This document shows positions 6,781 to 45,319 of a stretch of DNA of 64,000 nucleotides, in pieces. The first letter of the stretch is position 1. Every line of letters begins with the position of its first letter. Both the position numbers and the translations under genes were made by a program. The notes beneath the pieces were generated by a model. The model saw nothing but the letters and a program-made list of their open reading frames with translations. It was not told the DNA's origin and made no database searches. The stretch lies in the NCBI GenBank assembly GCA_030568195.1, contig JAJLTO010000002.1, forward strand, positions 1 through 64,000, given 5' to 3'. The stretch comes from Dipodascopsis uninucleata var. uninucleata. Lineage: Eukaryota > Ascomycota > Lipomycetes > Lipomycetales > Lipomycetaceae.

Positions 6781-7606
6781 ATGGTATATAGTTACTTCGT
6801 TTTATGCTTTATGCTTGTAAAGTCGTCTGTATAAGATCTACTGACAGTTTTTAGAATGCCTTATTCAATCATGCTCTAAAGCAATCTCAGTCGCTCAAGC
6901 GGGATCTAGACTCGTTTTCGTCGTCACCTGCTGCGACAAGCTTAGCTTTGCAAGGTAATTAATGCTGACTTTGGTTTCTAAAGATACATTGTTCTGACAG
7001 TCTATTTTAGGTCAGATATCCGCTACACTAGCATCTCTACAACGGACAATAGATGAGTATGATGCAATGGCTAGACGAGAACTCGTAACAGAAAAACAAG
7101 ATAAGGCGTTTGCAAGAATAAAGAATTTTCGTACAGAGGCTAGTGAAGCTCGATCGCTATTTGAAAGATTAAAGAAAGAGCGCGAGGACGTTATCAATAA
7201 TCAAAATAGAACGGAACTTCTTGGCCGACGACCACATCATTCTGCCACACCTGACAATCCATATTCTAATTTAACAGACAGATCTTCGGCTTCTGGTCTT
7301 CAAAATCAAATTTTTTCAGACTCCATTCCTACTTCTGCAGTACCTCACGAGTTTATAAGTAGAACAGGAGAGCAATTAGATGAATTTATTGAGCGAGGAC
7401 GGGCAGTTTTAGGTGACTTAGTGGAGCAGAGAGATATCTTAAAATCAACACAGCGAAAATTATATAGCGCGGCCAATACATTAGGTATATCAAATGATAC
7501 TATTAAATATATTGAAAGAAGAGCGAGACAAGATAGGCTTTTCTTTTATCTCGGTGTGACTGTGTGCATAGTGTGTTTTTACTACATTTTAAAATGGTTT
7601 AGATAG
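6781..7606 (+). CDS. BOS1: Golgi/ER SNARE Bos1 (membrin family)
   Basis: A Qb-SNARE for ER-Golgi vesicle fusion. The model has three exons (6781-6783, 6855-6954, 7011-7606; 232 residues). The first exon is just the ATG, followed directly by GTATAT. It joins to NALFNHALKQ, the usual start of fungal Bos1 (M-N-x-L-[FY]-N-H). The middle region SLKRDLDSF...IDEYDAMARRE is the N-terminal helical domain. A SNARE helix ends at NDTIKYIERRARQDR, and a tail anchor LFFYLGVTVCIVCFYYILKW closes the protein. The second join gives LALQG-QISATL. It is convergent with the carrier gene (101 bp apart). The family call is strong; the start codon rests on family agreement. Confidence 0.85.
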
Positions 7607-7707
7607 ATTAGGAAACCTCTTACTGTACTTCTATAAAATTTAATTATACTGCATATAGGAAAATACATAGGAAAATACAAGAATTTTTTTCTAATAATTC
7701 GTCTAAT

Positions 7708-9768
7708 TCATGGTAAATTCATAATGTTCTTGCAGTTTTCATATGCAACGTAACTAATAAAGTCAGATGTTTGAAGCATCACACCGTTTCACAAAATATT
7801 TAACTTACCTTATGCTGACAGCTGGAGCAACCTTTATCAAATTCGGGAGTAGTCCTCGAAAAAGGCCACGATAGCCTTCATTTCGAAGAAGCTGCTGCAG
7901 TACCTATAGGATATATTAGTATTCTTCATTCCATGGTTACCAGTTATTTATACTTACATCGTTGACGCCGGAATATCGTTGAGGATGAGCAGCTGTACCT
8001 TGTGTTTGAAGTCTAGTTCTTAAAACATTTATCGGGTAGACCGCAGTAGCTCCTATACTTCCGCTTATAGCTCCCATGGTTAAAACAAGCATATTACCTA
8101 TGCTTATTTCCTCCTCTTTGACGCTGAGCTGCTTTGACTTAGCTTTCACGTAACCTCTTTTCATAGCCTCGAAAGTTCCAAGATCCAAAGCAGCAAATGG
8201 AAATATTCCTGCAAGGCCTAATGCCAGTCCTCGATAATAAGCTTTGAATCCTTCCGTTCGCCACATATCTTTGGCCGTTTTTACCAGAAGTGCATTACCC
8301 CGCAAGGAGCTAGATTCTGATTCACATTGTAAACGGCTAATAGACAACGACGAATCTCATATTAGAACAAGGACTTTAAGTAATATTATTGGAAAGGAGT
8401 GACTTCAAATTAAAATATAACCTACAATTTTAATGTGTCAACAGGATATACAGCAAATTGAGAAACGGTACCTCCTATTCCGCCTGCCAAAAAAGAGGAG
8501 ATTCCGGACATATCTGAGATTGTAGTGCCTTCTATATTTGCCAATACCTTCTTTGCTGTTTCAAAAGAGCCAAACTTAATGGCAGATTCCGGAAATATTT
8601 TCAAGATGTTTATACTATCTATTAGAATCTTTGGAATTATTCATTAAGAACATTAACTTACCCATTTCCTAGGAGATACGTTAGTTTTTAAAAATTGTTA
8701 AGCGTGCAATATTTAAAGACCAATACATCATCAGCATACCAACAAAAAAACTTCTAATTCCTCTTTCTGCCCATATAGCTTTCGTAGCTTGTACAATAGA
8801 ACTGGCCATAATTTTCGACCGAATACCAGGCACCGATTTTTTTTTGGCAATATGCGGAACTTCAGAAACATGTGCAATGAGATAAACCTTCAGCCTATAT
8901 GGATACGCTATTAAAATCAACTTCATAGACTAACAAATGTGTGCTACCCACCTATCAAACGGAGCTGTGGCAGTTCGGGATATGGCACCGGCGATACCAC
9001 CAGCGAGAAAATAGCCCATGTCATTCGAAGTATCGTCATTAATGACAACGTCCCCTTCCGTATTCATGGGACGATAACTAATGAAATATCTATAAGCAGC
9101 TTTAATACTCAACTTCTCAATAGGTAGAAACAAGAAATAATCTGTCCAATCTTTAAATGAAATTGCTATATAAGTAGAATATTAGTATCAATCATTGTGA
9201 CCAATATACACTTACATACCTCCATCTCTATCTTTATCCATGCTATCAAAAAATTGTTCTAGACGCTCCTTAGATACCTGAAGCCCAGCATTCTCCAGAG
9301 CGTCTGCGACTTCGTCCTTGTCTAAAAGGCCACTGTTGTCTCTATCAATAGCGATAAATAAATTCCATAGCTGATATTCCGCTTTCTGTACAAAAGTTTT
9401 AAATTCCTCATACTACATAAGTGTTCAGTCAGCGAACTTGAGTATCTGTAAAGATTTCAAAGGACTAAATCTTATAAGAGACATACCTCAATCTTCCCGT
9501 CCCCATTAGCATCGACCATAGCAATTATATCGGACACTAATTCATCTGCAGATGCCAATGCTATATGCATATTAGTAGAGGACGATTAATGACCGTAAAT
9601 ATCTTTCATACAATGTCTTGCCGAATCAAAAACCTCGCTTATTGCATCTTTATCTAAAAAGCCCAGGTTTTTCTTATCTAACGAATGGAAGAGAAGCTGG
9701 ATGCGCTCGTCTTTGTCCTTCGGCGATTCTTGATTCAGATCCTCTGGAAATTTTGGCAGTGTCGGCAT
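7708..9768 (-). CDS. SAL1: Ca2+-regulated mitochondrial ATP-Mg/Pi carrier (SCaMC/Sal1 type)
   Basis: Inner-membrane carrier exchanging ATP-Mg for phosphate under Ca2+ control. The model has ten exons: 9768-9594, 9545-9487, 9412-9220, 9165-8952, 8894-8740, 8662-8668, 8614-8426, 8336-7958, 7903-7809, 7753-7708, giving 503 residues in frame. The N-terminal half has EF-hands: one degenerate (DKKNLGFLDKDA) and three good loops (DANGDGKIEYEE, DRDNSGLLDKDE, DKDRDGAISFKD). The C-terminal half has three carrier repeats: GGIAGAISRTATAPFDRLKV, the FFVGNGINILK and PESAIKF segment, GGIGGTVSQFAVYPVDTLKF, and SGSIGATAVYPINVLRTR. A 7-nt exon supplies the invariant GNG. The second exon's acceptor is uncertain: a 33-nt intron is also in frame and would add five residues. 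This is the most intron-dense long gene in the window. Confidence 0.85.
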
Positions 9769-16065: not shown

Positions 16066-17072
16066 TTATTTAAAGAACGGAAACTAAGACTCTGCAATAA
16101 TAGAACTATTTTGTAGTAGATGAATCAGGAGAGACCGAACTGAAAGGAAAAGGAAAAGTCGCATTAACATATATATATGGATTTGAGCATAGTTATCTAT
16201 ATCACTTATGATTAAGTTATAGTTTATCTCATTAACTTTCAAGGAGCTACGTCGATTTTCATTTCATCTTCTTTCTTCCTTAACTTCTCAAGAGACTGTA
16301 TTTTACATGCACTGACCAAGTCAGAAATATCTATCTCTAAGACACACACCTATCTTGCCTTTTCTAAACTGACCATCTCAGTCAGTCAATCTTTCTTAAT
16401 CCAGATCAGCTGGTATTAGAATCGTAATTAGCCTTAGCTGCAGTTGCATGAGCTGTATTGAAATGCAGACTGTAAGATCAAAGAGGTTTAAATTCATTGC
16501 GAAGCGACTGAGAACTAGCCATATATCCTCGGTAAATAACCGTCATCCTCGGTAAATTAGGTACTATCCTCGGTAGGACCTAAATTTAGTTAATAAGCTT
16601 ATATTAAATGAAGCACTATTCCGCTTTGAGGCATTTGAAAAACTCACGTGAAATTGCTAGGGTTCCTGAATTTAGGGCCTTAAAGAAGATGTAAAATAAT
16701 TAGGGCGTAATATTCAAATTCACAGGGACCCATATCAGTTCAAAAATTTTTCAGAAGAAATTTTTATAATCTTAATGGGACGAAGGAGAGGAGGTATGCC
16801 TGATAAATATACCAGAATCAGCAACGCATTTATCAATTCAAATTACGAGTTCCCGTCATTCATATATGCTGATATAAGTGATAACATCATTAATTAGGCT
16901 CAGTTTTCAGATCTATGGAGTAATCGCTAAGGTTAAAAAGGGCAGTTTGTATGTGACAGTTGTTTTTCGTGTTTTTTACTTGCTTAAACTGATTTTTTTT
17001 GTTTTTTTTGTTAACGAAGAAAGACAAAGCTTTATCTTAAATAAAATACTCAAATTATTGAAGGATTGAGAA
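16066..17072. promoter_or_regulatory. Divergent promoter region, MFS / KAP123
   Basis: About 1 kb. A T-rich stretch (16,987-17,010) precedes the KAP123 start. A CACGTG lies at 16,645. The repeat at 16,525-16,575 is listed separately. No coding exon seen. Confidence 0.5.
16525..16575. repeat. Three copies of ATCCTCGGTA at about 20-bp spacing
   Basis: The 10-mer ATCCTCGGTA starts at 16,525, 16,545 and 16,566. Spacing of 20 and 21 bp is close to two helical turns, as expected for an array of factor-binding sites. It lies about 0.5 kb from each flanking start codon. Confidence 0.6.
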
Positions 17073-20000
17073 ATGTCAGATCAACAATTCTTACTACAAT
17101 TAACTGATCTGCTTAGACAAATAACAGCGCCGAATAGTGCTGCTATCAAGGCTGCTTCAAGTCAGCTTCAGAAAGAATTTTATCCACAGAAGCAGACACT
17201 CCCTGCTTTAATCCAAATCCTACAACAAAATCAAGAAATTGGAATTCGGCAGCTAGCTGCTGTTGAATCCAGAAAGCTGATCGACAGTCAATGGGAAGAG
17301 TTGGATGAGTCAATAAAGGCTGACCTAAAAGCCTCTCTACTTCAATCGACACTGCAAGAGCAATCAGGTTTGGTCAAACATGCATCTTCGCGAGTTATTT
17401 CTCAAATTGCAACGAAAGATCTTTCAGGAGGAAAGTGGCCGGATCTTCTCGTTTTCTTACAGAAGACTGCACTGTCTGATGTTCCATCGGACAGAGAAAT
17501 CGGCGTTTATATTCTTTATACTCTTTTGGATTCAGCGGAAACAATTTTGTTGAACTCTCTAGGAGATATTTTTTCGCTCTTTTCCAGAACTATTAACGAT
17601 CCTGAGAGTCTAGTGGTTCGTACAAATACTCTTCTTGGTTTGGGGAAGATTTCTGAAATTCTTGAAGCGGACAGCACTCCAGAATACGTTCAAATGTTTA
17701 GATCAGCCCTGCCTGCAATGGTCGAAGTCCTAAAGCAGTTGATTAATGAACAAGACGAAAAGGCTGTTAACCAAGCATTTGATGTTTTTCAAACTTTGCT
17801 TCTTGTGGACTCTGCTTTAATAGCGAAGAGTTTGGGGGATTTAGTTCAGTTCATGGTTCAAATTGCTTCCGAGAAGTCACTGGAGCCTGAATTCCGTGTA
17901 CCTGCGATACAATTTTTGATTAGTGCTGTTCGCTTCAAAAAGCTTAAGATACAGTCAATGAAGCTTGGTCCAACATTGACATCTGTTGCATTGAATATAG
18001 CTTCCGAGGATATAGGTGACTTGAATAGCGAAGATGAAGATAATGCTTCGCGAGTTGCACTTTATCTTATCGATACTCTATCCACTTCTCTTCCTCCTAC
18101 GCAAGTTATGAACACTTTGCTTACTACTGTACCATCTATGGTGAACTCTGCTGATGCAAATGCGAGACGAGCTGGTCTATTGGCTATGGGTGTTGCGGTG
18201 GAGGGATCGCCAGATTTTGTCTCCACACAGATTAATATAATCCTTCCTCTTATTCTTCAAGGTTTACGTGACTCTGTATTAGAAGTGAGAGTTGCTGCAT
18301 TGCAATCTCTAGCTCAGCTAGCTGATGAATTACAAGATAGTATTAGCAAGGAACATGCTGTTTTACTACCTTTAGTCTTCGGTATGATGGAAACGTCCGA
18401 TCTGAAAATCGGTATTGCAGCCTGTACAGCTCTTGATGCTATGATTGAGACAATGGAAAAGGATGTGATTGTTGGATATTTGCCGACGCTCATGCAAAGA
18501 TTACTTGAACTTCTTAACCAGCCATCGAGTGATGTTTCTCTTAAAGGCTCCGTAATTGCTGCTATTGGCTCTGCAGCACATGCTTCTAAGGATGCATTCC
18601 TTCCTTATTACGAATCTACAATAAGATCTTTTGAAGTTTATATAAGTTTGAAAGAAGGAGAAAAGGAATTAGATGTTAAAGCTCGAACATTTGACTCAAT
18701 CGCAGCTATCGCAAATTCTCTTGGTAAAGAGTCATTCAATCAGTTTGCTAATCCTATTGTTAATGCTGCTTATGAGAGTTTGCAAGGTAATCATACTAAG
18801 TTGCGAGAGTCGGCGTTTCTTTTCTTTGGTACAATAGCAAAAGTTTATGGATCTGAATTTGCTTCGTTCTTACCACAATTGATGCCTGAAGTTTTCAAGT
18901 GTTTGGAACAAGATGAGGGTGCAACATTATTTCCGGAAGAACTAAATGGAGATGCAGATGACCATATTGGAGAAGCAGATGAAGAAGATGTATGGCAAAA
19001 TATAACCGTGAATAGTGCTATGGCAATTGAAAAAGAAGTAGCAGCAGATACCATTGGTGACCTGATTGTAGGAACAAAGGAAGCGTTCTTACCTTATATG
19101 GAGAAATCTTCTGAGATACTGATTGAACTGTCAAAGCACTTTTACGAAGGTATCAGAAAAGCTGCCGTTGGCTCTCTTTGGCGTGCATTGATTACTATTT
19201 ATGAAATTTCAAAACCAGCCAGATGGCAAGCAGGTTTGCCTCTTCGTGTACCTCTGTCCGAAACTGTAACTACATTTGCAGCTATGGTGAGGACTGCAAC
19301 TTTGGAAATGTTAGATGAAGAAGATGATAGGTATGCATAATTCTTCTTTTTAAACGGATGGAGGAGTGGTGGTACGTTAATTAATATGATGAAAAACTTT
19401 TTTCAAACTCAGCTCACTCAGATGCGCATGGTTGCAAATGCTGCTATAAATTTTCTGAAATTAACGTTTCAAATACCTTTGCCTTGTTGATGTTACTCCT
19501 GATTTTAATTCTAACTCAAATTTAGGTCCACTGCTACCATAGTTTGCGATAACCTAGCTGAAGCAATTAGAGAATGTGGTCCAGGCATTGTTGGTGATGA
19601 CTTGGAGAATATTCTTACTCAAATGCTGGCGATTTTGAAAGGACAGCACCGTTGTCAAACTATGGAAAACGATCCAGAAGAAGAGGAATACGAAGATTCT
19701 GCTGAATATGATATTTTGCTCATCGATTCTGCTATGGACGTTGTTGTTGCACTTGCCGCTGCTTTCGGTTCAGATTTCGGTAATTACTTTAGGACTTTCT
19801 GCCCAATTATATTAAAATACTGCTCTAGTTCTACGGAAGGCGAAAGAAAGTCTGGAACGGGTGCTTTAGCCGAAATTGTCAATGGTATGAAATCAGCCAT
19901 TACACCATGGAGTGCTCAACTCTTAAAAGCCTTCACGCATCGAATTTCTGACGAAGCTGTAGAGGTTCGAAGTAATGCAATTTATGGTTATGGGTTGCTA

Positions 20001-23178: not shown

Positions 23179-23886
23179 AATTTCCTGGATAGTGACTCGC
23201 TTCAAAGATTGTACAGTAGTTTCATCAATATGTTGCTTGTATCTCTCTCCACTTTTATGAGATACATCTTATTAAACAGTTTTTTAGCTGCTGTTTTCCT
23301 GAAGCTGTTTTAGTTTTATCCACATGCGGGCAAAAAAATACGTCATAAATGAAGCGCGAGACCCTATTTTTGGTATATTTATAAACTCAACGACATCCAG
23401 AGGTCAAGAGTCACGGAATAAACTCATGTATGACCTGGTACGGCTGCCGGTAAAAATAAAGTTATAGTGTGTATATCATTATTTACTTTACTTCTGGCTA
23501 TGACGCATGCGTAAAGTCTAAAATCAAATATACGACATAGTTATAGTTATAATGGCAATATTTACCGATTATATTGCATTTAAAGTTCAATAGTATATCT
23601 CAGAGTACCAAAATATTCAGAAACTCAGAAACCTTGAATAAGACTTTAATTTAGCACGTCACAAGACTGTATTGTTTGAACACTTGTAACAGCCGTACTT
23701 CAATGATTTATAGAAGTAAAACCATAGTAGGAAATGCAAAAGTCCTCGAGGTTTCTAAAAAAAGGTCGATCAAAGATAAAATAGATTAAATAGAAAAATA
23801 TAAATACTAGTCGTCTTCTCTTTACATCTGCAACATACTCGTCAATTAGTTACTCAATAAGCAAAAAATTCATTAAAACAACCACC
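23179..23886 (+). promoter_or_regulatory. Promoter of the But2-domain gene
   Basis: About 0.7 kb. TATAAAT at 23,799-23,805 lies 82 bp before the start codon and is followed by a CT-rich stretch and then an A-rich leader (ATTAAAACAACCACC before the ATG). This arrangement is typical of a strongly expressed fungal gene. Confidence 0.5.
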
Positions 23887-24867
23887 ATGAAATTTTCAAC
23901 ATTGGTCACACTTGCTACCTTAGCAATTCCTTGTTTTACTTGGCCAGTACAGCGCCGAAGCGATGCTTTTGGATTCGTTGCAATACACTCTGGATCACCA
24001 CTCCAGTATGCCACTCTCATCTTGAAAGATGGAAAGGCTTATCTTGGAAGTGGAGACGGTCCAAGTTTCGAGATTGACAGTGGCAAGCTTAAGGTGGTTG
24101 GTTCTGACGAGTACGTCTATGTTGATAAGTCTTCTAGAGCAGTTCTCTATGGAAGTGATATTCCATCTGATGATATCTCTGTTACTTGGAATATTGACAA
24201 TTATTTGGAGCTAAACGAGAATGCTGGCTCAATTGCTTGTCAAGTCGGCAGCAGTTATCAGCTCTACTGGATTGATGAGAATGATAACTCTTTCTCTTGT
24301 TCCAACTCTTATGGTGTCGGGCTGATGCCAGTGTCCATTGCTTCCCCTACCACTTCTTCTTCTACTGCTGCTACCACTAAGGTGCATGCTGCAGAGGCTA
24401 CTGTAACTCTGTTGCCACCTAACTTACTCATTCCAGCTAAGAAGACTGAACCTACCAAAGCTTTTGGCTCCCAATATACAGGTAAGGTCGTCACCGATGA
24501 GATCGAGACTTTCGTCTCCTTCGATGTGCCACCCCTCTCTTCTAAGCAGGTTGGATCGTGCCACCTTAAATGGAGTACTCCATCAATTGGCTCTTTCCCA
24601 TCCACCATCAAGGGCACTAAGGAAGTTGATGTCTACGTCGTTAATGAGACACTTAACGAAAGTACTCTTACTTGGGATAATAAGCCTACTCGTGGATCGT
24701 TTGTTGGCACGTTCAACGCCGCTAGTGGTGTGTTTACTAAGTCCTCTGTAACTTGCGATTTTGGGAAGAAGCAGCAATTTGAGCTTGTTGCTCACGGTAA
24801 CTCTGATGTCGAGTGGTTCCAGGAGCTGAAACCACTGACTGGATTTAATTACATCATGTTGGCATAA
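23887..24867 (+). CDS. Secreted protein with C-terminal But2 domain
   Basis: 326 residues, intronless. A signal peptide (MKFSTLVTLATLAIPCFTWP) is followed by a QRRSD site that a Kex2-type protease could cut. Residues about 28-150 form a beta-rich domain (FGFVAIHSGSPLQYATLILK) that resembles N-terminal domains of fungal wall proteins. A Ser/Thr linker (TTSSSTAATT) may be O-glycosylated. Residues about 185-326 match the But2 C-terminal family: GKVVTDEIETFVSFDVP, CHLKWS and a W-containing strand. But2 C-terminal domains are frequent in secreted proteins of Taphrinomycotina and filamentous ascomycetes; their biochemical role is unclear. A strong TATA and the codon use suggest high expression. Confidence 0.75.
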   Translation: MKFSTLVTLATLAIPCFTWPVQRRSDAFGFVAIHSGSPLQYATLILKDGKAYLGSGDGPSFEIDSGKLKVVGSDEYVYVDKSSRAVLYGSDIPSDDISVTWNIDNYLELNENAGSIACQVGSSYQLYWIDENDNSFSCSNSYGVGLMPVSIASPTTSSSTAATTKVHAAEATVTLLPPNLLIPAKKTEPTKAFGSQYTGKVVTDEIETFVSFDVPPLSSKQVGSCHLKWSTPSIGSFPSTIKGTKEVDVYVVNETLNESTLTWDNKPTRGSFVGTFNAASGVFTKSSVTCDFGKKQQFELVAHGNSDVEWFQELKPLTGFNYIMLA

Positions 24868-36013: not shown

Positions 36014-39000
36014 TGTAAAGTAGTTATATGCTAGGATAATTAGGAGGACATAGGATTTCATGTACTGTAGGTGATTCATCGCAGTTGGCAATTGAGAAAT
36101 ATGGCTGATCAACAATCTTTTGATAGTGAAGATATAAGGGGTGCAGCTGTGATGTTGTTACTGCTAGATGTGAGAAATCCAGCAATGTTAAGACGCTGGG
36201 TTTAGCAGAGAAATGTGGCATCTCAGAACACGACTTACCTATAATCCTATCTAAATTCATTATTGGGGCAATACTCTTAGGCGTGCTGTACCTCATGATG
36301 TCCTACTTTGGTGGGAACATATTCGTTCGGGCTGAAAGCTATCCATACAAGACTTATTATGGTATAATAACGGGCAGAGATAGTGATCTAAGTTACACTG
36401 TTAGCACAGTTGTTAACAATGTTACAGGCAGGCCGCTACAAATCATACAGTTCGACGAGGAGGTCAGCGGTTATTCCCAACTGTCAAATGAGCAGATCGG
36501 AGAGATGGCCTACGATAGATATCTGAGCAATATCGAAAAGAGACGTGATGAATTGGGCATGTGAAGCAGGTATTGTTGGGATTTTATCCAGAGGCCTGGA
36601 GACTTTAGTATTACTCAGGAGAGTGAGTGGATAGAAGTCGATAGAGAGGTTTCGAGGGTCTTGATGAGAAGATTTACGAATGCGCGGACAAATGCGAGCG
36701 TGCATATAATGTCATGGAAACGCTGGATTCGTTGTTCAATATCGACGATGCAAGTCTCACAGCGAACTTTGTGAAAAGACTCTCAGATCTGAAGATGACT
36801 TCTAGAAAAGAAGGAAGATGGTTTCTAAGGGAAGTGAAGGAGCTCTACCAGTTCTTAGAGAAGCTGTCGGGTACAGAAATGTTCCTTAGACTGATGCTGC
36901 GCAAGCTTCAGGCACCAGAGTAGAGCTCGATCGTGGCAGTCCTGACGCGCGAAAAGTCGTTCACATATGATGACATGGAAAGGATGTTAATTCAGTATAA
37001 CATCACAACAGACGGCATGATAAGCCGAAGTGACCATCAAGAGAGAGAAAACCTCAAGAAAGGCGGGAAGTTAATCAGAAGAAGCCAGCATTGTGATATA
37101 AGTGTAATCAACCAGGACACTTTGCGGACAAGTGTACGTCGTTCAAGAATGAACCTAAGATACACTTAATGCAAGAAAGTATGAAGCACAAAGATGTATC
37201 TAAATGGAAGATAGATACGGGAGCAGAAGTACACGTTGCCACGGACAGGGAAGTGTTTGTGACATATGAATCTGTAAGAGACTACCAGACCGTACAAACA
37301 CTGGGTAACTTAAGCCTCAGAGTAGTTGGAAAGGAAACAGTTAAGTTACCCTTGGAAAACAGCCGATTGGCTATAAAGGATGTTTATCATGTACCCGAAG
37401 CGGGGTCAAATCTCATATCCATGTCCAAGCTGGAAGAGCAAGGACACGTAGTAACGAGAGCAGAAGATAAAGCCTGGAAAATAAAGTCAAACGAGGAAAA
37501 ACACACATTTAGGGATTATGTGTATGGAAGATCCAATGAAGTACTGGAAGTCAGAAATCAAATAGAACTGTGGCACAGAAGGTGCGGACATGCTAGTGAA
37601 AGCGTGTTAAATGATATGGCAAGGAACTTGTCAGGAACAGAGTTCATGAAAGGCACAAGCAAAATGCCGATGTGTGAGGCATGTGAGACAGCTAAAAGCC
37701 ATAGGTTACCATTCGGAAATGGTATACATACGGTGGTCGAAGTACCGTTAGATTTAGTGCACAGTGATGTATGCGGATATATGCGCTGTGTGGGAGTAGA
37801 TGGGTACCGATTTTATGTGTCGTTTATTGATGACTATACAAACTACGCGATGGTGTATTTGCTTAGATCGAAAGATGAGGTATTCAGCAAATTTAAGAGA
37901 TACATGGTAAGTGTAGAGAGACTCAAGGGACGAAAGATCAAGAGACTCCGAAGTGATCAAGGAACTGAGTACAAGAATTTGCAGTTTAGCAAATTGTGTA
38001 CAGAAACAAGTTATGAGCCCTGATAGCTTACATAGACTGGATACAAGGCAAGATTATCAACGGTGGAAAGACGATGCACATGACTTGGGCCTCACGAGCG
38101 GGAATAATTTGAGCTAAAGATCTAGGAGAGTTGAAGTATTTTCTAAGAATACAAGACGAAACAGAGAAAATTACTTAAAATGGATAGGTCAACCGATGTA
38201 CATTGAGAAGATGTTAGAAAGGTTCAATATGAAGGACTGCAAACCAGTTAAAACACCGCAAGAAGTTGGTATGCAGCTGAGTAAGAATAATTGTCCGAAA
38301 ACGGAAGAAGAGACCATGTCTATGAAGGCGACACCTTATGCAAATGCAGTTGGAAGTTTAATGTATGCAGCGAATAGTACGCGACCAGATATAGCTTTTG
38401 CAGTTAGAGAAGTGGCCAAGTATTTGCAAAATCCTGGATCAAAACACTGGAGTGCAGTGAAGAGAATATTTAGATATCTACAAGGAAGCAAAGAAGTAGG
38501 AATTACTTACAAGAGAGAGGAGGAACTCAAAGCTAAAGGATTTTCAGGTGCCAGTTGGATTTCTGAACCTGATACCTTGAAAGGTGTTACTGGATATGTG
38601 TTCTTATTAGCAAACGGGGTTATTAGTTGGGAAATAAAAGGAACTCCAAGTATTGCTCAATCGTCTACAGAGGCAGAATTGGTAGGTCTGACTGCTGCGT
38701 CGAATCAAGCACTATGGCTTAGTTATTTATTGTCTGATTGTAGATTTGATGTGTTACCAATCACAATTTATGAAGACAACCAGTCTACGATAAAGATCAG
38801 TGAAACTGACGTAATTAGTCATAGAACCAAAGATATTCAGGCGAAGGACTTACTAATAAGAGATAGAATATTGGAAGGAACAATTAAGGTTGAATATATA
38901 CCTTCAGAGAATATGGCAGCAGACATGCTGACGAAGGTATTACCTTACCAAAGGTTCAGTGAATTGAACAAAATGATTAGCGTATGTTGATTAGTCTATT

Positions 39001-43785: not shown

Positions 43786-45319
43786 TTAGCCTCTAATTAC
43801 AATGTCTTTGCCCTTCGTCAAATACTTCACCCCTTTATATGGCTTTGCACGATCTTCAGTACCTTTCCCACTAAGAATACGTAAACTCTCTACTCTAGCT
43901 CCACTCACTAACATTCCCTGGCAGTCATATGATATCTTAACAAATTTTGGAAACTCCTGAGGAACTGTACCGTCTGCTGCAGTTTCAAGATCCTCATTGA
44001 CGACCATGGTTCCTCTAAGAGAGGCATTCCAGCCCATCGGAGTTCTTCCCGGAAATCTCCAAACTCCACATCCCTTCTTTTCTATGTTAAACTCTCCCGA
44101 TGATGTCCGAATTCCTTTTATCGTCTGAGAACGGTCACCATCAAATACAAGTTCAACCTTTAGATTCTCAACATGCTTGACATTTCGTGGCACTCGGGTC
44201 CACACGCGGACCTCGAACTCATCTTTCGCAGGGCCTAAGCCAGTTTTGAGATCGCCTCCAACAGGTCCTGACTCTACACCTGATATGGTATATTCCAATA
44301 GACAACACTTCCCATCTGGAGGGATAAATGATAGCGTGCCAGGTCGCTCTTGCCATCTTGTCATTCGGACGCAAGGGTGAAATGCGGGCCCCTCCAGTAA
44401 ACGATTTGCAAACGAAATAATCAATTGAATATCTGGAACTCCTGAGAGTTTTGTGTTTGCATAGACGCATCCATTTGCTATGGATACTATGGGCTCGGCC
44501 AAAACCTGAGGTACGGAAGAAGTATAAAATGCAGATGATGATGCGACACCGTTAGTGCCATTTATATTATTGAGCAGAGCTTGCATCGCTGTAACTGCAG
44601 GAATTATAACACTAAGCGTCTCTTGAATATCCACATATAACTCCTGGTTATTGTGTTTTACATCAGCTCGACGCCAAGGAACACCGCTTCGCATACTAGA
44701 CGATAAAGCTTGCGAACTAATCGCATTGGAGGATAGTGATGTAGAAAATCCCTTTAGCGACTTTGCTGCCGCGGCCGGGAGCTTTGGTAAATACTTTGAA
44801 ATACCGTCTTTGTAAGGCACCAGATCCCGCAGTGGATTTTCCTCAGTGACAAATGGATAACCGTCCTCAATCATTTCATTTAATAGCATCATAATAATGG
44901 AGAAGTTTTTTTCGATCTTGACCTTCGAAATAGGTGGTGTAAAATAGTCATGGAGGACTTTTATCAGTCTAGATATGAATTCGAAAGGTACTAATGCAGG
45001 AACTGAGGGATCACATGGAACTAAAAATCGCAAAGCATCTTCCTTTCGATGAAAAAGCAATTCACGCGATGATACTTTGACTATGGGATCCTCATCTGAG
45101 GACTCCGACAGTGCTCTTAATAGCGTCTTACTAGTTGGAGGAACTGCAGACGCTGGATAACTCAAAATCTCCTGACTAAATGTTACACAAGTATTAGAAT
45201 AATTCAGTACGATTTCATATCTTTTCGCAATTGTCTTGTCAATAAATACTCTCTAGGTGATCTTTCCATCTTATGACATACCCATTGATATCAGTTATAT
45301 ACAGTGCTGAGATGGACAT
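43786..45319 (-). CDS. APM3: AP-3 adaptor complex mu subunit
   Basis: Cargo-binding medium subunit of AP-3. Two exons (45319-45282, 45175-43786) give 475 residues. The first exon encodes MSISALYITDIN, the start of the longin domain, and the join makes NG-QEILSYPASAVP. The N-terminal domain contains FEFISRLIKVLHDYF and NEMIEDGYPFVTE, conserved in mu subunits. The mu-homology domain begins near VPWRRADVKHNNQELYVDIQETLS (about residue 175) and runs to the C-terminus, with FHPCVRMTRWQERPGTLSF and the late WRFPGRTP. VPWR-x5-HxxNExYVDI-like wording and the pairing with APS3 in the same window support AP-3 over AP-1/AP-2. Confidence 0.9.

What the first reader, a model, noticed from the sequence alone, without database searches (positions are those of the whole stretch)
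8662..8668. Seven-nucleotide exon in the Ca2+-regulated mitochondrial carrier
Between exons ending FFVG and starting with NILK the frame fails, and the invariant G-N-G of the carrier signature is missing. A 7-nt exon, GAAATGG, flanked by CTCCTAG and GTAAGT, restores frame and gives VGNGINILK. Exons this small are hard for splicing by exon definition and are easily missed by annotation software.
Basis: partly seen in the sequence, partly recalled or inferred. Interest (0 to 1): 0.75.

Follow-up and report, generated by a model that had tools for sequence, protein, structure and literature searches.

The report
Seven-nucleotide exon in fungal carrier gene
A fungal gene for a calcium-regulated mitochondrial transporter very probably contains an exon of only seven letters that supplies a conserved glycine-asparagine-glycine; such tiny exons are already known elsewhere, and this one can be skipped by software without breaking the reading frame.

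Summary
The observation largely holds. On the minus strand, GAAATGG (8668-8662) lies between a CTAAC branch-like site plus CCTAG and a consensus GTAAGT, inside a ten-exon, nine-intron model of a Sal1/SCaMC-type carrier: 502 aa, three Mito_carr repeats, EF-hands. Including it gives FFVGNGINILK, the best-scoring of the 18 in-frame splicings that I scored against PF00153: 76.5 bits, next 68.3. In 20,000 shuffles of the interval, GNG in frame arose twice without splice-signal demands and never with them.

Two corrections. The frame need not fail without the exon: joining 8740 to 8618, through a TAG four bases upstream of the proposed acceptor, gives an open FFVDSINILK, one residue short and without the signature glycine. 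The risk is therefore a silent misannotation. Exon definition is not the obstacle, since the flanking introns are only 71 and 47 nt.

Weak points: no transcript and no orthologous gene could be examined. The second intron's CTAAT is only 7 nt from its AG, and its acceptor scores below the competing one.

This is a new instance of a known kind; fungal exons down to 6 bp are in print (PMC1184071).

The parts
8662..8668 (-). 7-nt microexon GAAATGG; completes the split Gly codon (G|GA), encodes Asn (AAT) and starts the next Gly codon (GG|T)
   Evidence: sequence; translation; PF00153 comparison; shuffles
8669..8739 (-). Intron 5, 71 nt, GTATGC...AACTAAC-12 nt-CCTAG, phase 1
   Evidence: donor score 8.8, acceptor 6.2, inside the training ranges 6.0-10.9 and 4.3-8.2; branch-like motif 12 nt from AG
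8615..8661 (-). Intron 6, 47 nt, GTAAGT...TTCTAATAGATAG, phase 2; CTAAT only 7 nt from the AG
   Evidence: donor score 10.0, acceptor 5.3; motif distances
8619..8621 (-). Competing TAG acceptor four bases upstream; in frame only if the microexon is skipped
   Evidence: acceptor score 7.8; translations of four joins; CTAAT 3 nt from this AG
8740..8894 (-). Exon 5, ends ...ERGIRSFFV + G
   Evidence: translation
8426..8614 (-). Exon 7, starts T + ATA AAC ATC... (INILKIFPESAIKFGSFE)
   Evidence: translation
7707..9768 (-). Whole coding region of the EF-hand mitochondrial carrier gene, 10 exons and 9 introns (51, 74, 54, 57, 71, 47, 89, 54, 55 nt), 502 aa; the last exon was given to 7707, one base past the stop codon
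   Evidence: gene model; Pfam Mito_carr 231 bits with three stretches, EF-hand_7 74.9 bits; solved SCaMC-1 regulatory domain 66.8 bits

Best explanation
The gene encodes a fungal ATP-Mg/Pi-type carrier (Sal1/SCaMC kind) whose first carrier repeat is interrupted by two short introns, 71 and 47 nt, that leave a constitutive 7-nt exon between them. Each intron is recognised across itself (intron definition) and removed separately, in either order; the exon then supplies the signature glycine and the following Asn-Gly. Shown here: the sequence, the open frame, the profile gain and the splice signals. Inferred: that the cell splices it this way, that inclusion is constitutive, and intron definition.
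For: The join is open over 502 aa. Of 79 in-frame splicings enumerated with GT or GC donors (12 with one intron, 67 with two) I scored 18, namely 8 of 12 and 10 of 67; the microexon form is best at 76.5 bits, next 68.3, in-frame skip 60.6. With it, the three solved ADP/ATP carriers gain about 7 bits each (1okc 82.2 against 74.9, 4c9j 78.4 against 71.3, 4c9g 74.6 against 67.3); for 1okc and 4c9j the printed alignments run without a gap over FFVGNGINILK against FWRGN.ANVIR, while the skip form needs a gap. It also aligns without a gap to repeats 2 and 3 of the same protein (BLOSUM62 59 and 48 against 45 and 40). Donor 8661 scores 10.0 and donor 8739 scores 8.8; the nine model donors are among the ten best of 104 GTs in the gene (seven of the nine were in the training set, 8739 and 8661 were not). 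Branch motif AACTAAC 12 nt from the CCTAG. Chance of GNG: 2 of 20,000, and 0 of 20,000 with signals.
Against: No RNA evidence. Intron 6 is atypical: CTAAT 7 nt from its AG, against 9-25 nt for the nearest motif in the other seven introns of the gene; a review gives a minimum of 8 nt in humans and a mean of 13 in S. pombe (PMC8624252). If CTTAAT is the branch site instead, the first TAG downstream is 8619, which scores higher (7.8 against 5.3) and would put a stop right after GNG. A skipping join keeps the frame.
Confidence: 0.92

Rival explanations
1. No microexon: one 121-nt intron 8739-8619 is removed, giving FFVDSINILK, a 501-aa carrier lacking the signature glycine.
For: In frame; acceptor 8619 scores 7.8, above 8615 at 5.3; found by an intron scan of mine that cannot see microexons.
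Against: 16 bits worse against PF00153 (60.6 against 76.5); needs a gap against the other repeats and against the solved carriers; must pass over the AACTAAC/CCTAG and the GTAAGT inside it, and its only branch motifs are 3, 25, 34 nt or more from the AG.
Confidence: 0.04
2. Cassette switch: both forms are made. Skipping is paired with the upstream TAG of a 4-nt tandem acceptor, so a working (GNG) and a defective (DS) carrier of equal frame arise from one gene; the two mixed pairings stop at once.
For: Of the four joins translated, only include+8614 and skip+8618 are open; skip+8614 and include+8618 hit stops at once.
Against: With two acceptors, one open skipping frame is not surprising by chance (my estimate, not computed). 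No regulatory element was sought and no conservation could be tested.
Confidence: 0.03
3. Sequence or assembly error, or a decaying gene, with the apparent microexon a coincidence.
For: None beyond the absence of RNA data.
Against: The other nine exons form one intact 502-aa frame with conserved domains; shuffles make coincidence improbable.
Confidence: 0.01

Closest known systems
Fungal microexons: Phanerochaete chrysosporium P450 genes (PMC1184071, passages)
   Same: Fungus; very short exons (shortest 6 bp) among small introns of 45-55 bp
   Different: P450 genes of a basidiomycete; here an EF-hand carrier gene of a probable ascomycete, 7 nt
Trichoderma Xlr2 microexon (PMC11121469, passages)
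   Same: Ascomycete microexon absent from the automatic gene model
   Different: There RNA-seq-supported and regulated by glucose; here only predicted, with nothing showing regulation
Plant microexons of 15 nt or less, down to 1 nt in APC11 and VPS55 (PMC8831610, passages); Drosophila 3-7 nt microexons (PMC8042270, passages)
   Same: Same size class or smaller; often missed by annotation
   Different: Other kingdoms; supported by RNA-seq and RT-PCR
Mitochondrial ATP-Mg/Pi carriers (SCaMC/APC; yeast Sal1) (PMC6283063, passages)
   Same: EF-hand regulatory domain, linker, carrier domain of three repeats
   Different: First EF-hand loop non-canonical here; the microexon is a feature of the gene, not of the protein family

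Membership tests
Spliceosomal microexon (30 nt or less) | Internal exon of 30 nt or less bounded by AG and GT | tested here: met
   7 nt, CCTAG|GAAATGG|GTAAGT
Spliceosomal microexon (30 nt or less) | Present in spliced RNA | not testable with these tools
   No transcript data among the tools
Spliceosomal microexon (30 nt or less) | Needed for a conserved protein sequence | tested here: met
   PF00153 76.5 bits with it against 60.6 for the in-frame skip; best of 18 scored forms
Mitochondrial ATP-Mg/Pi carrier (Sal1/SCaMC) | Carrier domain of three Mito_carr repeats | tested here: met
   PF00153 231 bits, 3 stretches
[quoted passage not shown]
   Two EF-hand pairs (PF13499, 2 stretches); matches solved SCaMC-1 regulatory domain over residues 18-160; 3 of the 4 loops fit the PROSITE pattern quoted in PMC6283063, the first does not
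Mitochondrial ATP-Mg/Pi carrier (Sal1/SCaMC) | Amphipathic helix in the linker | not tested
   [quoted passage not shown] its helix was not analysed
Mitochondrial ATP-Mg/Pi carrier (Sal1/SCaMC) | Closest to Sal1/SCaMC rather than other EF-hand carriers | tested here: inconclusive
   Length and the SCaMC-1 match fit, but no orthologue tree was possible: viral contigs and genome contigs held no relative by the tool's test
Stwintron (nested twin intron) | Internal intron interrupts a splice motif of an external intron, leaving no exon between | tested here: not met
   The two introns are consecutive and the 7 nt between them are needed for G-N-G

The most novel reading that the evidence does not exclude
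A coupled splicing switch: skipping the 7-nt exon together with use of the TAG four bases upstream of the tandem acceptor yields an in-frame carrier with the signature glycine replaced (FFVDSINILK), while the two mixed pairings stop at once, so a cell could tune active Ca2+-regulated carrier without changing transcription.
Probability: 0.04. Interest if true: 0.55.

Novelty: new member of a known kind. Interest (0 to 1): 0.27.

Why it matters
It is a clear, testable case of how a very small exon can vanish from a gene model without leaving a frameshift: the wrong model is open, only one residue short, and lacks a conserved glycine. It also offers an intron-definition test case in a fungus, with a 3' and a 5' splice site seven bases apart. 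The kind itself is known in fungi, plants and animals.

Tried and rejected
Tried without result: own-genome search (no genome held); relatives in viral contigs (6 stretches matched a pattern, 0 confirmed) and in genome contigs (125 matched, 0 confirmed), so intron-position conservation could not be tested; no tRNA and no Rfam match to help name the organism. Identity of the organism rests on a Kap123 best match and a But2 domain: a probable ascomycete, not named further.

Considered and rejected: stwintron; GC donor at 8735 (FFVGIINILK, 67.3 bits); donors at 8726 and 8720 inside the interval (68.3 and 66.0 bits, donor scores -0.1 and -1.5); the scan hit at 45282-45306, which is a probable first coding exon. 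Not scored against PF00153: 4 of the 12 one-intron forms and 16 of the 26 GT-GT two-intron forms, all of which use donors at 8794-8770 and delete part of the exon; and the 41 two-intron forms with a GC donor. Limits of the splice model: 21 training introns, 14 of them from my own scan, which already demanded GT[AG]NG, YAG and a branch motif; I kept 14 of its 28 listed introns by judgement, besides the 3 that belong to this gene.

Full report
What is there. On the minus strand the window holds a gene of ten exons, 9768 to about 7707, whose joined exons give 502 residues without an internal stop. Pfam finds three Mito_carr stretches (231 bits in all) and two EF-hand pairs. The solved regulatory domain of SCaMC-1 matches residues 18-160. 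Three of the four EF-hand loops fit the PROSITE pattern quoted in PMC6283063 (passages); the loop at residue 31 does not. It is an EF-hand mitochondrial carrier of the Sal1/SCaMC kind; no tree could be made.

The exon. GAAATGG sits at 8668-8662, after CTCCTAG and before GTAAGT. It completes the Gly codon begun by the last base of exon 5, encodes Asn, and starts a second Gly codon finished by the T at 8614: FFV-GNG-INILK. The exon's length is not a multiple of three, so the frame depends on the acceptor used downstream.

Alternatives. That is so for 8740 to 8614 (FFVV then stop). But a TAG four bases upstream lets 8740 join 8618 in frame: FFVDSINILK. Of the four pairings, only include+8614 and skip+8618 are open. 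I enumerated in-frame splicings with GT or GC donors: 12 with one intron, 67 with two, 26 of the 67 using GT twice. I scored 18 (8 of 12 and 10 of 67) on the first carrier repeat against PF00153. The microexon form has 76.5 bits, the next 68.3, the in-frame skip 60.6. Against solved ADP/ATP carriers the microexon form gains about 7 bits in 3 of 3 (1okc, 4c9j, 4c9g). In the printed alignments of 1okc and 4c9j it runs without a gap through this stretch, against FWRGN; the skip form needs a gap. The same holds against repeats 2 and 3 of the protein itself.

Chance. With the interval shuffled 20,000 times (dinucleotides kept), some in-frame microexon of 1-30 nt appears often when no signals are asked (6,422) and seldom when they are (67). 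FFVGN with the right spacing appears 30 times and once, FFVGNGINIL 2 times and 0 times. In the whole window, both strands, the strict signal pattern fits two places; the other is a probable first coding exon.

Splice signals. In a small model trained on 21 other introns, donor 8661 scores 10.0 and donor 8739 scores 8.8 (training range 6.0-10.9), and acceptor 8669 scores 6.2 (range 4.3-8.2). Intron 5 has AACTAAC 12 nt from its AG. The results against the reading lie in intron 6: acceptor 8615 scores 5.3 while the competing 8619 scores 7.8, and CTAAT lies only 7 nt from 8615. The other seven introns of the gene have the nearest motif 9-25 nt away. CTAAT lies 3 nt from 8619, too near to serve it on general grounds; if CTTAAT, 25 and 29 nt away, is the branch site, 8619 would be met first. 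I therefore expect some mis-splicing to 8619, which after inclusion gives a stop directly after GNG.

How it works. The nine model introns are 47-89 nt. With small introns, pairing of splice sites across the intron is thought to prevail (PMC8624252, passages), and the title of a fission yeast study, seen only as a reference entry (paper not held), claims this for S. pombe. The two introns can then be removed one after the other, and after the first removal the seven bases are part of a long exon. This step is inferred.

Annotation. A scan of mine that asks for at least 45 open codons on both sides of an intron returned the skipping intron 8739-8619 as an ordinary one. By its construction it could not have found a microexon, so this illustrates the trap and is no test of any real program.

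Novelty. Very small exons are known: 1 nt in plants (PMC8831610, passages), 3-7 nt in Drosophila (PMC8042270, passages), 6 bp in P450 genes of a fungus (PMC1184071, passages), and a regulated one in Trichoderma (PMC11121469, passages). Eight literature searches gave no listing of a microexon in a Sal1-type gene; the 10 listed of 33 papers had no use of the word microexon. This is a new member of a known kind.

Organism. Not named. Kap123 is the best solved match of the importin at 17070-19340, and a But2 domain fits an ascomycete (recalled distribution).

Noticed in passing
45251-45319 (-): Start of an adaptor-complex medium-subunit gene (Adap_comp_sub in the ORF 43786-45252). The N-terminal frame joins the main frame only through a 31-nt GTATGT...CTAGAG intron (45281-45251) among the five AG ends tested up to 79 nt that keep the start of the main frame; a 61-nt one also joins it further in. 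A 31-nt intron would be unusually short here.
   Followed up: partly
37097-38023 (+): Retrotransposon polyprotein piece: Pol_BBD and gag_pre-integrs above their cut-offs, rve just below its own (31.0 against 32.6); looks Ty1/copia-like (recalled).
   Followed up: no
6998-7606 (+): Convergent neighbour of the carrier gene: a V-SNARE_C/Sec20-type SNARE.
   Followed up: no
23794-24867 (+): But2 C-terminal domain protein with an overlapping weaker CBM96 match.
   Followed up: no
31-43 of the carrier protein (exon 1): First EF-hand loop DKKNLGFLDKDAI does not fit the PROSITE calcium-binding pattern while the other three do, suggesting a partly degenerate first EF-hand.
   Followed up: partly
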